Program-made: the position numbers and the translations under genes
DNA from: Bacteroidia bacterium
GTDB taxonomy: Bacteria; Bacteroidota; Bacteroidia; JADZBD01
Assembly: GCA_020852255.1 (NCBI GenBank)
Contig: JADZBD010000015.1
Span: forward strand, 62,001-126,000
Length of the DNA stretch: 64,000 nt
Direction: 5' to 3'
Notes under the pieces: model-generated
The model's database searches: none
What the model was told of the DNA's origin: nothing
What the model saw: only the letters and a program-made list of their open reading frames with translations
Shown here: positions 39,600-44,732 of the stretch, piece by piece
Layout: every line of letters starts with the position of its first letter
Position numbering within the stretch: the stretch's first letter is position 1

Positions 39600-40592
39600 A
39601 TGAATTCGTCTTTCCGGCATACTGCCGGCACAACAATATTAAAGGAGCAGACTGCCTCCGTCGGCCGCGGAAGCTATTATGCGTTTGGAAGCCTGATGCC
39701 AGGACGTTCATACAACTCAAACACAGCGAGATATCTGTTTAACGGAAAAGAAAGTGATGGAGAAGTATATGGCTCCGATGGAACGAGCTACGATTATGGG
39801 TTCAGGATTTATAACCCCAGGCTGGGAAGGTTTTTGAGTGTGGACCCGCTGACTAAAAAATACCCACATTTAACCCCATACCAATTTGCGAGCAATAGAC
39901 CCATTGATGGCGTAGACCTTGATGGCTTAGAATGGAGTAAATCCACGAATTTAGCCACTGGGGAAACGACCTATACAATTAAACTGAAGGTCGTTAATAG
40001 TTCCTCTTTAACTAAGGAGCAGATTGCCGAACATGTTTCTAACATCCACGCATATCTCAAGTATGACGTTGAACATGCAGGGGCTAATTCAACAGTTAAT
40101 ATCGAATATGAAATTATAGATGTTCAAGATGTTGATTGGGAAAATGATTTTATTATGGAATTTAGGGATAGAGTTCTTGACGATGGCGAAGAGCATGATG
40201 GCTGGACACAGAAGTTTGGTGACACACAATCAAATTGGATGCAAATTTCTGTTGGTGGAGATAGAGATGCTGAGTTTATAGCAAATACTGGCGCTCATGA
40301 ACTTGGGCATACCGCAGGATTGCCGCATGAAACGGGAGGGCATGACCGAAAAATTGATTTATGGAAGAGTCAGCGCCTCATCAGGCAAAAAATGCTTGAC
40401 CAGTATAGGGAGCATGGGAAAAAGAACTTGATGATTTCAGCAGGTGGAGAGAATGGTTTATTCAAGGAGCAGGTCAAAGAATTCAATAAGTTTATACCAT
40501 GGTTTAAAAAAGGAGCTTCATATAAGCCTGATAAAGGTGAAAAGGAAGCTAATTCAACAAGGTCACAAAATGATTCGAGGAATGATAAATAA
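39600..40592 (+). CDS. orphan RHS-core tip with metzincin protease domain (putative toxin)
   Basis: 330 residues with no signal peptide. Residues 26-110 are the conserved RHS core: YYAFGSLMPGR, RYLFNGKESDGEVYG, the hyperconserved DYGFRIYNPRLGRFLSVDPL, and YQFASNRPIDGVDLDGLEW. After the DPDG-type junction the variable tip (about 111-330) has HELGHTAGLPH at 233-243, a complete HExxHxxGxxH zinc site, and a candidate Met-turn (NLM, Met278). This is the pattern of metzincin proteases. The large RHS shell is missing, so this is likely a displaced tip stored for recombination, or a stand-alone remnant. The tip is A+T-rich against its neighbours, and the lipoprotein after it overlaps. Confidence 0.8.
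   Translation: MNSSFRHTAGTTILKEQTASVGRGSYYAFGSLMPGRSYNSNTARYLFNGKESDGEVYGSDGTSYDYGFRIYNPRLGRFLSVDPLTKKYPHLTPYQFASNRPIDGVDLDGLEWSKSTNLATGETTYTIKLKVVNSSSLTKEQIAEHVSNIHAYLKYDVEHAGANSTVNIEYEIIDVQDVDWENDFIMEFRDRVLDDGEEHDGWTQKFGDTQSNWMQISVGGDRDAEFIANTGAHELGHTAGLPHETGGHDRKIDLWKSQRLIRQKMLDQYREHGKKNLMISAGGENGLFKEQVKEFNKFIPWFKKGASYKPDKGEKEANSTRSQNDSRNDK
39614..39628. repeat. short inverted repeat at the left end of the island
   Basis: CCGGCA and TGCCGG flank a 3-base loop, inside the first codons of the RHS fragment. Its place near the truncation point is the only reason to list it. Confidence 0.4.
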
Positions 40593-41073
40593 TTTTGGGT
40601 ATATATTTTTAGTTTTATTTTTATCCTCTTGTTTCACACGTATTAAGAAAAGTAATTCTGACCAATCGAAACCTGACTCATACATTTGTATCGTTGATAC
40701 GTTTTTGTCAGGAAAGCTGTACGATACGGGACGGAATCAAATAATTCTAAGGGGCAGGAAGGATTCTAAGATTCAACCACAAAATGATTCGCTGTATGTT
40801 GCCTTTGAAGTTGATTTTTATAATTCTGAAGTTTCAATTTCATGTGGAAATAAATTGTTATATGAAGGTAAAGTGACTACTCATGGAAACTTAGGACTTG
40901 CAAAAGGGATTTATATAAAAAAGGAGGTTGCGTGCAATTTGTCTTTCGTGATTAATGGGTTTGCGTTTACTTGCTCTAACGACATTTCAAAGTATAATGT
41001 ACTCCGCATTAGACTGTTAAACGGGGAAGCTATCGTGATTTATTCCGACAATAAAAAACCTCGGTATAAGTGA
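40570..41073 (+). CDS. lipoprotein, candidate immunity protein to the RHS-metzincin tip
   Basis: 167 residues from ATG 40570, preferred over ATG 40582 because it supplies a positive residue before the hydrophobic core. A lipobox LSSC places lipid-modified Cys21 at the membrane. The mature domain is beta-rich (CIVDTFLSGKLYDTG, VAFEVDFYNSEVSISCGNKLLYEG). No family is recognised. The gene overlaps the 3' end of the toxin-like ORF by 23 bases, has the same A+T-rich composition, and ends in its own terminator. Position immediately after an RHS tip, and an envelope location opposite a secreted protease, are what one expects of an immunity protein. The role is inferred from context only. Confidence 0.65.
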   Translation: MIRGMINNFGYIFLVLFLSSCFTRIKKSNSDQSKPDSYICIVDTFLSGKLYDTGRNQIILRGRKDSKIQPQNDSLYVAFEVDFYNSEVSISCGNKLLYEGKVTTHGNLGLAKGIYIKKEVACNLSFVINGFAFTCSNDISKYNVLRIRLLNGEAIVIYSDNKKPRYK

Positions 41074-41092: not shown

Positions 41093-41116
41093 AAGCTACT
41101 TTTAAATCGGTAGCTT
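41093..41116 (+). terminator. Rho-independent terminator after the immunity-like gene
   Basis: Stem AAGCTAC/GTAGCTT with a 10-base loop, followed by a run of T residues to 41121. It closes the RHS-tip/lipoprotein pair. Confidence 0.85.
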
Positions 41117-41172
41117 TTTTTATGCTTGGAATAGGAGCGAACCTTTTCCCCGCCTATTTATTATAAAAGGCC

Positions 41173-41523
41173 ATGAAAAGCATTATCACTCCTGAAGGAT
41201 ACATCCGCTTAAAGGATACGGAAGGAAAAAGCGCATTAATCGGACAAATCCGAAATGGTATCACCTTCAACCTGTTTAAAAGCGTTCCACGCAAGGTAAG
41301 AGTTGTGGAGTTTAAGCTGGGAAAGAATACCGACCCGCCTGGCGGACGGGCAGGCACGTTTTACTTTCATAATTACAATCCTGTGTTCCATCACATAGGT
41401 TCCAGGGAAGAGCACCCTTTGCTTACAAAAATATACATGCTGTATTTTCTGGAGGAAAGCACGTACACCCCAGAGTCGTTTGTAAACTACGTTTGCAAAA
41501 ACTACTTTGTGGAAAAGCTGTGA
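41173..41523 (+). CDS. small protein of unknown function beside recombinases (116 aa)
   Basis: ATG start at 41173. No signal peptide. The sequence (ITPEGYIRLKDTEGKSAL, FYFHNYNPVFHHIG, LTKIYMLYFLEESTYTPE) is not recognised. It could be a DNA-binding or recombination accessory protein by position, but nothing in it shows this. Residues 53-61 (DPPGGRAG) are encoded by a nested GC-rich palindrome that sits in frame, suggesting a small repeat inserted without breaking the reading frame. Confidence 0.55.
   Translation: MKSIITPEGYIRLKDTEGKSALIGQIRNGITFNLFKSVPRKVRVVEFKLGKNTDPPGGRAGTFYFHNYNPVFHHIGSREEHPLLTKIYMLYFLEESTYTPESFVNYVCKNYFVEKL
41337..41357. repeat. GC-rich nested inverted repeat inside the 41173 ORF
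   Basis: The string holds CCGCC/GGCGG and GCCTG/CAGGC inverted arms in a stretch much richer in G+C than its surroundings. It looks like a dispersed mini-repeat that entered in frame. Other copies were not found in this window. Confidence 0.5.
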
Positions 41524-42108: not shown

Positions 42109-43002
42109 ATGACCTCTTTTCCTTCTCGGTGCAGGGAGCGTGAGCTGGTAAAAGAAAGCAAACCAGCCGAGTATGTGTATATGCACGTAAGCTATGTAAA
42201 GGAAATGCTTGTGTTCGTTGAAGAGAGCACTGTAACGGATGTATGCAAAGTTGACCAGACATTGATGGACACCTATTTGAATTATCTGCAAACGCAAAGA
42301 AGAAAGCAACGGGGCGAAGGATTGCTTGATGAACAAACCATTGCCCGTCACAAGGGAGCCATCCGACAGTTTTTTAAATATCTGGTCCTGGAAGGATATA
42401 AGGTTTTTCCGATTCGGATTTATCACAAAAGAAAAAAGGCAATAGGACTGCCAACTGTGCTCACCCATGAAGAAATCCGACAACTTTACTCGGTGTGTGA
42501 TGATTCCGCCATTGGACACCGTGACCGCTGTTCACTGGCCATTTTTTATGGATGCGGAATGCGAAAAAGCGAAGGACTGCGTTTGCTGGTTTCTGATATT
42601 GATTTTTCAAGGAGCAGAATCCACGTGCGCAAAGCAAAAAATAACCGAGAGAGGTACGTGATGATGTCACCCACCGTACAAGTCCATGTAGAAGAATACG
42701 TGTACAATTACCGTGACCTATACCTGCCAGAGGGTTCCACTTACGATGAACTTTTTATTTCTGAGCGTGGGCTACCTGTAAAGCCTGAGACAGCAGCCAA
42801 GCGCATGGAAGCTCTTTGGCAACGGGTGAAGGACCGATACGGAAGTGATAAGCGAGTGGGCATTCACACTCTTAGGCATACTTTGGGCACACAGTTATAT
42901 ATGGTAGGCATGAGCATTGAAATGATTGCACTCATGCTGGGTCACGTCACTCTGGAAGCCACACAGCGATACATTCATATAGCCAATCACTTAAAAAAAT
43001 AA
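42109..43002 (+). CDS. tyrosine recombinase (integrase, Xer-like)
   Basis: 297 residues. The N-terminal core-binding domain (about 20-110) precedes a complete catalytic domain with Arg152 (GCGMRKSEG), a lysine near 175, His253/Arg256 (IHTLRHT), His279 (LMLGHV) and Tyr288 (TQRYIH). It would cut and rejoin DNA at specific sites. It is one of two integrase genes in tandem. The next starts two bases after its stop. Its presence next to an RHS tip and to composition-shifted genes marks a mobile region. Confidence 0.93.
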   Translation: MTSFPSRCRERELVKESKPAEYVYMHVSYVKEMLVFVEESTVTDVCKVDQTLMDTYLNYLQTQRRKQRGEGLLDEQTIARHKGAIRQFFKYLVLEGYKVFPIRIYHKRKKAIGLPTVLTHEEIRQLYSVCDDSAIGHRDRCSLAIFYGCGMRKSEGLRLLVSDIDFSRSRIHVRKAKNNRERYVMMSPTVQVHVEEYVYNYRDLYLPEGSTYDELFISERGLPVKPETAAKRMEALWQRVKDRYGSDKRVGIHTLRHTLGTQLYMVGMSIEMIALMLGHVTLEATQRYIHIANHLKK

Positions 43003-43004
43003 TT

Positions 43005-43268
43005 ATGGAAAAGTTCGAGCAGTACTTAATTGATAATAATATGAAATGGGATGTAGCCAAAGTGTACGCACGCCTGGCGAGACATTATCTTAACTGGGTG
43101 AGAGAGAATAATCTTCGTGTGAAAAGTGTTAAGCGCACACCTTTTACCGATTGGATTCAACAGTGCCGTGAGAATGGAAATGGAGACCGAACGATTTGTG
43201 CTAAGGAACTGGCCATCAAAAAATATTATTACTTCCTGGGTTGTAAGAATAATCCCGCTCAGAGTTAG
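43005..43268 (+). CDS. second tyrosine recombinase, N-terminal part (ends at an in-frame TAG)
   Basis: 87 residues, matching only the core-binding domain of a tyrosine recombinase (KFEQYLIDNNMKWD, YARLARHYLNWVRENN, AIKKYYYFLG). The reading frame ends at TAG 43266-43268 and continues in the same frame into the catalytic part with no other stop (43269-43880). The stop falls in the inter-domain linker. This is either a nonsense mutation, and so a pseudogene, or two separate polypeptides. Suppression of the amber codon is possible but unsupported. Confidence 0.7.
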   Translation: MEKFEQYLIDNNMKWDVAKVYARLARHYLNWVRENNLRVKSVKRTPFTDWIQQCRENGNGDRTICAKELAIKKYYYFLGCKNNPAQS

Positions 43269-43325
43269 ATAAAGAAAAAAAAGCAGCACACGCTTCCCAC
43301 AAAAGCACTCACCAGGCATGAGCTT

Positions 43326-43880
43326 TTGAAAATATACCAGTCGATAAAGCCTCGCACTCCAGTGGAGCACCGCAACCGCTGTATGCTTGGCTTTGTGGTA
43401 TTCCAGGGATTCATGCGCTCGGAACTCACCGAACTTCGAGAAAGCGATATTGATTACGAACGCTCAGAAGTGTTTATTCAAGGACAGAGCAGGACCAACT
43501 CACGAAGACTCAAACTTGAGTTTATTCAGATGCAACACCTGTATGATTACCAACACAAGTACCGAGCTGATTTTCTGGGAAGAGGCATGAGCACAAATAC
43601 GGACCGATTCTTTTTGTCCAGGGGAAAAGGCGAAGATCTGAACAATTCCGTTACCAGGTTGCTTAGAAAGCTGAGGTGGGAATTTCCCCAGGTGCAGGAC
43701 CTGCGTCACCTGCGTGGAAGCGTTATTACTAAGTGGCAGGACGAAGAAGGTTTGATGGAAGCCATGGTGAAGGCAGGGCACCGCTATGTATCCAGCACCG
43801 AGCGGTACCGCACCACCCGTTACGAGGAGCTTCAGGACCAGTTGAAGAGTTTGCATCCGCTGGAGAAGATGCAGTTTTAA
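43326..43880 (+). CDS. second tyrosine recombinase, C-terminal catalytic part
   Basis: 184 residues in the same frame as the preceding fragment. In-frame sequence before the listed TTG (LTRHELLKIYQS) already belongs to the catalytic domain, so no good independent start exists. Arg (GFMRSELTEL), the Arg of QDLRHLRG, the GH of VKAGHRYVS and the Tyr of TERYRTT are present. The usual first His of HxxR is Gln (Q-D-L-R). It would be inactive without its N-terminal part unless both are made. Confidence 0.7.
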   Translation: MKIYQSIKPRTPVEHRNRCMLGFVVFQGFMRSELTELRESDIDYERSEVFIQGQSRTNSRRLKLEFIQMQHLYDYQHKYRADFLGRGMSTNTDRFFLSRGKGEDLNNSVTRLLRKLRWEFPQVQDLRHLRGSVITKWQDEEGLMEAMVKAGHRYVSSTERYRTTRYEELQDQLKSLHPLEKMQF

Positions 43881-43915: not shown

Positions 43916-44428
43916 ATGCCACAAAAGCGAGCCGTTAATATTGAGATTGATAAGCTGACCAACTCCATTGTGAATGCCGTCTCTGGGGAAATTTTCGAGA
44001 CAGTTTTTAGTAAAGTATCAAGGAAGGAGATTAGAAATAGGGACTGGATTTTTAACTGGCATCATGAGTTGAAGGATAAAAGTAATCGGGTGTATAAAAT
44101 GACTACTGTCGAGAACGAAAATATTATTCACGGATTAATTTCCCTGAGTGTTCACCGTAACTTCGTTTTTGTAAACCTTGTGGAGAACGCCAACTTCAAT
44201 AAGGGGAAAGAGAAATTATATGAGGGTGTAGGTGGGAATCTGTTTGCGTTTGCATGTAAAATGTCTGCGGACTTGGGTTATGGCGGTTGCATCAGCTTTG
44301 TATCAAAGACTTCTCTGATGAAGTATTACAACCAGGCTCTGGGAGCAGTAAGGATAGCAGGTCAGCGCATGGTAATTTTAGAATCAGAAGCCGAAGAGTT
44401 AATTAACCGATATTTTAAAACCAAGTGA
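43916..44428 (+). CDS. GNAT-like acetyltransferase fold protein
   Basis: 170 residues. The pattern YEGVGGNLFAFACKMSADLGYGG, followed by YYNQALGA and RMVILESEAEEL, matches the acyl-CoA-binding part of GNAT proteins (motif GVGGNL for the Q/R-x-x-G-x-G/A loop). The first 60 residues are less typical. Its stop is one base before a 46-codon ORF, so the two are coupled. Stand-alone GNAT-like proteins paired with a tiny basic protein can be toxin-antitoxin modules, but usually the antitoxin is upstream and is a ribbon-helix-helix protein. The role is therefore open. Confidence 0.6.
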   Translation: MPQKRAVNIEIDKLTNSIVNAVSGEIFETVFSKVSRKEIRNRDWIFNWHHELKDKSNRVYKMTTVENENIIHGLISLSVHRNFVFVNLVENANFNKGKEKLYEGVGGNLFAFACKMSADLGYGGCISFVSKTSLMKYYNQALGAVRIAGQRMVILESEAEELINRYFKTK

Positions 44429-44625: not shown

Positions 44626-44709
44626 ATATCTTTATTCAGTGAACACCGCCAAAAATCCGATGGGTTCCCCCTCACACACAAGCCAAAATATACCATTAGG
44701 GTATTTTAC

Positions 44710-44732
44710 CTTCGGCAGTCTGCCTGCCGAAG
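44710..44732. repeat. inverted repeat at the right end of the island
   Basis: A perfect 9-bp stem CTTCGGCAG/CTGCCGAAG with a 5-base loop in the gap before the OmpA gene, without a following T-run. It marks the right side of the island as the hairpin at 39614 marks the left, but the sequences are not the same. Confidence 0.6.

What the first reader, a model, noticed from the sequence alone, without database searches (positions are those of the whole stretch)
39600..41073. RHS-core tip with a metzincin protease domain and an overlapping lipoprotein immunity candidate
Seen: the conserved RHS core junction is followed by a variable domain with HELGHTAGLPH (residues 233-243) and a candidate Met-turn (NLM, Met278), then a lipoprotein gene overlapping by 23 bases, then a terminator. 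Known: polymorphic toxins place a variable effector after the RHS core and the immunity gene directly downstream. Inference: an extracellular or periplasmic zinc protease effector neutralised by a membrane-anchored lipoprotein. The exact tip and immunity families are not ones I recognise.
Basis: partly seen in the sequence, partly recalled or inferred. Interest (0 to 1): 0.72.

Follow-up and report, generated by a model that had tools for sequence, protein, structure and literature searches.

The report
Orphan protease toxin-antidote cassette beside integrases
This is a shell-less 'spare warhead' of a bacterial RHS toxin, a metzincin-type zinc protease with its own lipoprotein antidote gene, parked beside a pair of DNA integrases whose relatives elsewhere carry such warheads, in one case inserted exactly inside an RHS toxin gene.

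Summary
In detail: RHS core remnant, HELGHTAGLPH (233-243), Met-turn NLM (Met278), lipoprotein gene overlapping by 23 bases, terminator. The variable domain belongs to a previously unnamed family of metzincin-type RHS tips: ten aligned domains keep HExxHxxG, and a profile of the other nine recovers the window's at E=7.5e-22. The lipoprotein belongs to a new family of secreted all-beta proteins (leave-one-out E=6e-9); homologues directly follow metzincin tips in two other genomes, others stand alone. Best read as a dormant toxin-immunity reserve. The most interesting point lies just outside the finding: two adjacent tyrosine recombinases (42109-43880, the second broken by a stop) of subfamilies that recur beside RHS tips in 11 of 51 tip-bearing stretches and 0 of 40 controls. 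In one relative a tandem 7.3-kb unit (tip, immunity, primase, both recombinases) is bounded exactly at RHS core codons, suggesting mobile elements that swap RHS tips. The window copy looks decayed and its ends were not found.

The parts
39600..40592 (+). Orphan RHS tip ORF, 330 aa: N-terminal leader (1-25), RHS core remnant (26-110), metzincin-type domain (112-330)
39675..39929 (+). RHS core remnant; begins at the YYAFG codons, one of two recurrent orphan breakpoints (YYPFG, YRFGFNG)
   Evidence: TIGR03696; breakpoints
40296..40328 (+). Zinc-binding motif HELGHTAGLPH (residues 233-243)
   Evidence: HExxHxxG conserved in the ten aligned domains
40425..40433 (+). Candidate Met-turn NLM (Met278)
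   Evidence: N-[LVF]-M in most relatives
40570..41073 (+). Lipoprotein, candidate immunity protein (167 aa), overlapping the tip gene by 23 nt
   Evidence: family by leave-one-out profile, E 6.4e-9; all-beta model, pLDDT 65 overall, higher in the core
41093..41120 (+). Intrinsic-terminator-like hairpin and T-run
41173..41523 (+). ORF of 116 aa, no family hit, no relative in the loci held
42109..43002 (+). Tyrosine recombinase 1 (Phage_integrase, E 5.7e-35)
   Evidence: rec1 subfamily
43005..43880 (+). Tyrosine recombinase 2, interrupted by an in-frame stop at 43266-43268
43916..44428 (+). ORF of 170 aa after rec2; a homologue follows a rec2 remnant in L102 and another lies in L114

Best explanation
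An orphan RHS toxin-immunity cassette. The toxin module is a metzincin-type zinc endopeptidase that would be the C-terminal cargo of an RHS shell. The immunity protein is a small all-beta lipoprotein that probably faces the periplasm and inhibits the protease there. In its present state the tip has no shell or export signal, so it is probably silent: a reserve for recombination into a shell, or kept for the immunity gene. It sits beside a decayed pair of tyrosine recombinases of subfamilies that in relatives belong to mobile elements carrying RHS tips. Shown here: domain family membership, motif conservation, gene pairing, absence of a shell, recombinase association. Inferred: catalysis, toxicity, inhibition, the compartment, dormancy, and that the window recombinases carried this cassette.
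For: RHS core over cut-off, with the tip directly after it. Leave-one-out profile E=7.5e-22 from nine relatives. PDB profile search: the 60 rows listed are all metzincins (MMPs, snake-venom proteases, serralysins, myroilysin, BMP-1), best E 0.003, over about 30 residues round the motif. Four of five members match Matrixin PF00413 weakly. Lipoprotein family: window E=6.4e-9, G690 1.5e-8, G022 4e-10 when each is left out; all three follow metzincin tips, and G022 has a second such pair with a truncated tip. In-genome tips L024 and L025 are also followed by lipoprotein-like ORFs. Standalone toxin-immunity cassettes are a described class (Zhang 2012, PMC3482391). Recombinase pair beside tips in 11 of 51 stretches against 0 of 40 controls, Fisher p=0.002.
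Against: No family model reached its curated cut-off for the C-terminal domain. The tip model is low-confidence and its Foldseek matches are meaningless. Immunity candidates of three further metzincin tips (G027, G100, G520) are not significantly related to the window's (E 1.6, 0.05, 0.03), and G148 and G007 have partners that look unrelated by eye. Four family members stand alone (L063, L065, L066, L097), so the family need not be immunity only. No expression or activity data.
Confidence: 0.72

Rival explanations
1. A dead remnant: both toxin tip and recombinases are decaying pseudogenes, and the lipoprotein is kept by chance or as an orphan immunity gene.
For: rec2 has an in-frame stop; no primase in the window element; no shell in the genome; G022 has a copy with a truncated tip but an intact immunity gene.
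Against: The tip ORF is intact with all zinc ligands and the Met-turn after deep divergence; the lipoprotein ORF is intact.
Confidence: 0.35
2. A self-standing secreted metalloprotease with a housekeeping or nutritional role, fused by accident to RHS sequence; the lipoprotein is an unrelated neighbour.
For: Free-standing metzincins of similar sequence exist (L043, L056); the lipoprotein family has free-standing members.
Against: No signal peptide; at least seven relatives sit at RHS core junctions, mostly with a signal-peptide or lipoprotein ORF next door; gene overlap; low G+C of the pair.
Confidence: 0.1
3. The zinc-site domain is a processing or release protease rather than the toxin.
For: PVC-metallopeptidases in polymorphic toxins are mostly release proteases (PMC3482391).
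Against: Those lie N-terminal to the toxin; here the protease is the last domain and a cognate-looking immunity gene follows.
Confidence: 0.05
4. The recombinase pair has nothing to do with the cassette; both lie in an integration hotspot.
For: Window element ends not found: the best match to the left junction scores 17/30, reached by 18 of 100 shuffles; tips generally lie on islands.
Against: All 14 pairs lie on the strand of the neighbouring tip; exact RHS-core boundaries of the unit in G030.
Confidence: 0.35

Closest known systems
Tox-MPTase1-5, HopH1-type and PVC metallopeptidase toxin domains of polymorphic toxins (Zhang et al. 2012, PMC3482391)
   Same: Zincin-type protease domains at the C-terminus of RHS and other polymorphic toxins.
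   Different: Described by HExxH and, for Tox-MPTases, likened to Wss1; the word metzincin does not occur and no immunity partner is listed for Tox-MPTase1-5. The window tip hits none of them in Pfam and has HExxHxxGxxH plus a Met-turn and a lipoprotein partner.
Orphan rhs-CT/rhsI and cdiA-CT/cdiI modules (Jackson 2009, cited in PMC13183296; CDI orphans in PMC4927057; Ornithobacterium hominis, PMC13183296)
   Same: Displaced toxin tips with immunity genes and a core remnant; CDI orphans are noted to carry integrase and transposase genes.
   Different: Those passages describe displacement without an identified machine; here one relative shows an element bounded at RHS core codons.
rAID (recombinase-associated acquired interbacterial defence) of Bacteroidales (PMC12247911)
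   Same: Tyrosine recombinase linked to immunity genes in the same phylum.
   Different: rAID has a recombinase and an array of orphan immunity genes; here two recombinases, usually a primase or helicase, and toxin-immunity pairs.
Matrixins, reprolysins, serralysins (metzincin clan)
   Same: Zinc motif and Met-turn.
   Different: Only the zinc-site region is alignable; none of the matched structures is an RHS tip.

Membership tests
Metzincin clan | HExxHxxGxx(H/D) zinc motif | tested here: met
   HELGHTAGLPH; HExxHxxG in all ten aligned domains
Metzincin clan | Met-turn methionine after the zinc motif | tested here: met
   NLM 35 residues after the last His; N-[LVF]-M in most relatives, lost or displaced in G022 and G007
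Metzincin clan | Two-subdomain metzincin fold | tested here: inconclusive
   AlphaFold2 pLDDT 44, pTM 0.40; Foldseek uninformative
Curated Pfam metzincin families (Matrixin, Reprolysin, Astacin, M43) | Score above the family's cut-off | tested here: not met
   Best Pfam hits below cut-off; PDB profile best E 0.003
Complete RHS polymorphic toxin | RHS_assc_core domain followed by a variable tip | tested here: met
   TIGR03696 51.2 bits, cut-off 32.5
Complete RHS polymorphic toxin | RHS shell repeats and a delivery route | tested here: not met
   No shell in the ORF; only short RHS-repeat ORFs in the genome; VipB and Phage_sheath_1 absent. T9SS and Sec routes not tested
Standalone toxin-immunity cassette (Zhang 2012) | Tip with core remnant plus adjacent immunity gene, no trafficking domain | tested here: met
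Tox-MPTase1-5 | Match to the family profile | tested here: not met
   No such hit in Pfam at E<=1
Transthyretin-like beta-sandwich (lipoprotein fold) | Clear structural match | tested here: inconclusive
   Z 6-7.8 to PepT2 and HGSNAT luminal domains and transthyretin; such Z can mean only a common arrangement
rAID | Recombinase followed by an array of co-oriented immunity genes with conserved intergenic motifs | tested here: not met
   Two recombinases, one immunity gene, upstream of them rather than downstream; intergenic motifs not tested

The most novel reading that the evidence does not exclude
A family of Bacteroidota integrative elements with twin tyrosine recombinases and a primase or helicase inserts site-specifically into conserved codons of RHS cores, bringing its own tip and immunity gene and displacing the old tip as an orphan; the window cassette is a decayed example.
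Probability: 0.45. Interest if true: 0.82.

Novelty: new variant of a known kind. Interest (0 to 1): 0.6.

Why it matters
It adds a metzincin tip family and a lipoprotein immunity family to the RHS arsenal, which suggests attack on envelope proteins rather than on nucleic acids. If the recombinase link holds, it names a candidate machine for the long-open question of how polymorphic-toxin tips are swapped, and makes it testable by looking for excised circles and junctions.

Tried and rejected
Structure of the tip: a 5-row alignment gave pLDDT 44 and random Foldseek hits; not used. The genome-contig scan with the single tip found nothing; with a 3-row alignment it found two loci already known from the genome search. 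IMG/VR and plasmids hold no tip relative, and plasmids and phages no lipoprotein relative, at the sensitivity used. Right end of the window element: a 21-mer at 44702 resembling the left junction (TATTTTACCTTCGGCAGTCTG against TATTATGCGTTTGGAAGCCTG) was picked by eye and is not supported by the 30-mer test against shuffles; L113 and L028 right ends also failed that test. Xer-like hits in viral contigs score below 150 against the rec1 model and none has rec2 or an RHS core beside it, so they say nothing about the element. PADLOC: nothing relevant. Known metalloprotease-inhibitor folds were not listed among the lipoprotein's structural matches, which excludes nothing.

Full report
1. What is there. 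ORF 39600-40592 (330 aa) starts with a 25-residue leader, then the last part of an RHS core (TIGR03696, E 1.3e-13), then a 219-residue domain with HELGHTAGLPH at 233-243 and NLM with Met278. The next gene starts at ATG 40570, 23 nt inside the tip gene, and encodes a 167-aa lipoprotein (...VLFLSSC). A hairpin with a T-run follows at 41093-41116. G+C falls stepwise from core to tip to lipoprotein (46.5, 39.4, 33.7%; window 47.8%), as expected for an acquired 3' cassette.

2. The protease domain. Searches in Bacteroidota genomes (two samples of 395 and one of 60 with tip queries) found further RHS tips with the same arrangement: G027 (L026), G100 (L036/L037, a Cryomorphaceae MAG by its record title), G690 (L042), G520 (L045), G022 (L067), G148 (L068), G090 (L087) and, more distantly, G007 (L027). 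With one free-standing metzincin (G702) and the window these make ten domains. Leaving each out in turn, the profile of the others recovers the left-out domain at E between 2e-23 and 5e-4; the window's at 7.5e-22. HExxHxxG is kept throughout and the Met-turn in most. The PDB sequences listed for the five-member profile are all metzincins, though only over the zinc site (best E 0.003), and no curated family passes its cut-off. So it is a divergent metzincin by motif and profile; the fold itself was not confirmed because the model was poor (pLDDT 44).

3. The lipoprotein. No family library has a model for it. Leave-one-out profiles unite it with the partners of the G690 and G022 tips and with secreted proteins L063, L065, L066 that are not next to RHS genes (window E=6.4e-9). 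A wider search added a second tip-immunity pair in G022, whose tip is truncated while the immunity gene is intact, and a free-standing lipoprotein in G154 (L097). The partners of G027, G100 and G520 are not significantly related. The model of the mature protein is all-beta (pLDDT 65 overall, mostly 70-88 over residues 41-130) and resembles transthyretin-like sandwiches at Z 6-7.8, which may mean only a common arrangement. By the rule, known to me from the literature, that surface lipoproteins of Bacteroidota carry acidic residues after the lipid cysteine, CFTRIKK predicts a periplasm-facing protein; this is inference.

4. State of this copy. The ORF has no shell and no signal peptide. The genome (99.8% complete) has three RHS tips in all, each a short ORF followed by a lipoprotein-like ORF. 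It has no full-length RHS and no hit for the T6SS sheath protein or Phage_sheath_1. This is the standalone toxin-immunity cassette of Zhang et al. 2012. One relative (G690) carries the tip instead on a 676-aa protein with a signal peptide and a 38-residue RHS tail; its N-terminus looks transglutaminase-like to me but had no Pfam hit.

5. The neighbours. Two adjacent tyrosine recombinases follow at 42109-43880; the second has an in-frame stop at 43266-43268. The same two subfamilies, rec1 then rec2, on the strand of the tips, occur in 11 of 51 stretches that hold RHS tips (14 pairs: window, L025, L027, L028, L030/L121, L112, L113, L116, L184, L187, L188) and in none of 40 stretches (736 kb) taken from mostly the same genomes without choosing tips (Fisher p=0.002). 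The controls are not matched for mobile islands and several are short. The rec1/rec2 models were built from five of the positive loci, so those five were not independent. A primase- or helicase-like gene precedes rec1 in every case except the window.

6. One relative shows an exact boundary. In G030 (L030) a 7,333-bp unit is repeated in tandem (7,496 bp aligned at 99.5%): tip, immunity gene, two HTH genes, CHC2/Toprim primase, rec1, rec2 (Pfam). Before copy 1 stands RHS trunk sequence; after copy 2 stands another RHS tip. Comparing the three junctions, the first and second share all sequence to the right and the second and third share all sequence to the left, and the change-over falls in CTTTTGGG inside the codons for Y-[PA]-F-G of the RHS core. 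This is what site-specific integration of an element into the RHS core would leave, with the older tip displaced. Unequal duplication or an assembly error could produce the tandem copy, but would not by itself explain why both outer boundaries fall at the same core codons. In L187 and L188 the order tip, primase, rec1, rec2, tip also occurs, without a defined boundary. Many orphan tips start at one of two recurrent places, YYPFG and YRFGFNG.

7. Verdict. Known kind (orphan RHS cassette), new variant (metzincin tip, new lipoprotein family). The element hypothesis is supported by one exact case and an association; whether it explains the window is open, since no right end was found there. Paper searches found no description of such an element, but the library is limited to open-licence papers.

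Noticed in passing
L030:542-15370 (G030:C40): Tandem 7.3-kb element (tip, immunity, two HTH, CHC2 primase, two tyrosine recombinases), 99.5% identical copies, bounded by RHS core codons; a third recombinase pair follows in L121:3797-5625.
   Followed up: partly
window 43005-43880: Second tyrosine recombinase carries an in-frame stop at 43266-43268, so the pair is probably inactive.
   Followed up: yes
window 43916-44428; L102:14809-15348; L114:18023-18568: A 170-aa protein without a family lies directly after rec2 in the window and after a rec2 remnant in L102.
   Followed up: partly
L024:9703-10803 and L025:9851-10939 (G000:C22): The genome's two other orphan tips: one with HEAFH and a sub-threshold Peptidase_M91 hit, one unassigned; both followed by lipoprotein-like ORFs, so all three cassettes may act in the envelope.
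   Followed up: partly
L042:1363-3390: Metzincin tip on a signal-peptide protein with only a 38-residue RHS tail, next to another large secreted protein that looks like a carrier without the tip (L057:5999-7561).
   Followed up: partly
L063, L065, L066, L097: Homologues of the window lipoprotein that stand alone, away from RHS genes; possible orphan immunity genes or another function.
   Followed up: partly
L101:990-1932 (G022): Second copy of a metzincin tip-immunity pair in which the tip is truncated and the immunity gene intact.
   Followed up: no
window 44702-44722: Sequence resembling the YYAFG junction near the end of the recombinase region; picked by eye, not significant in the test made.
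   Followed up: yes
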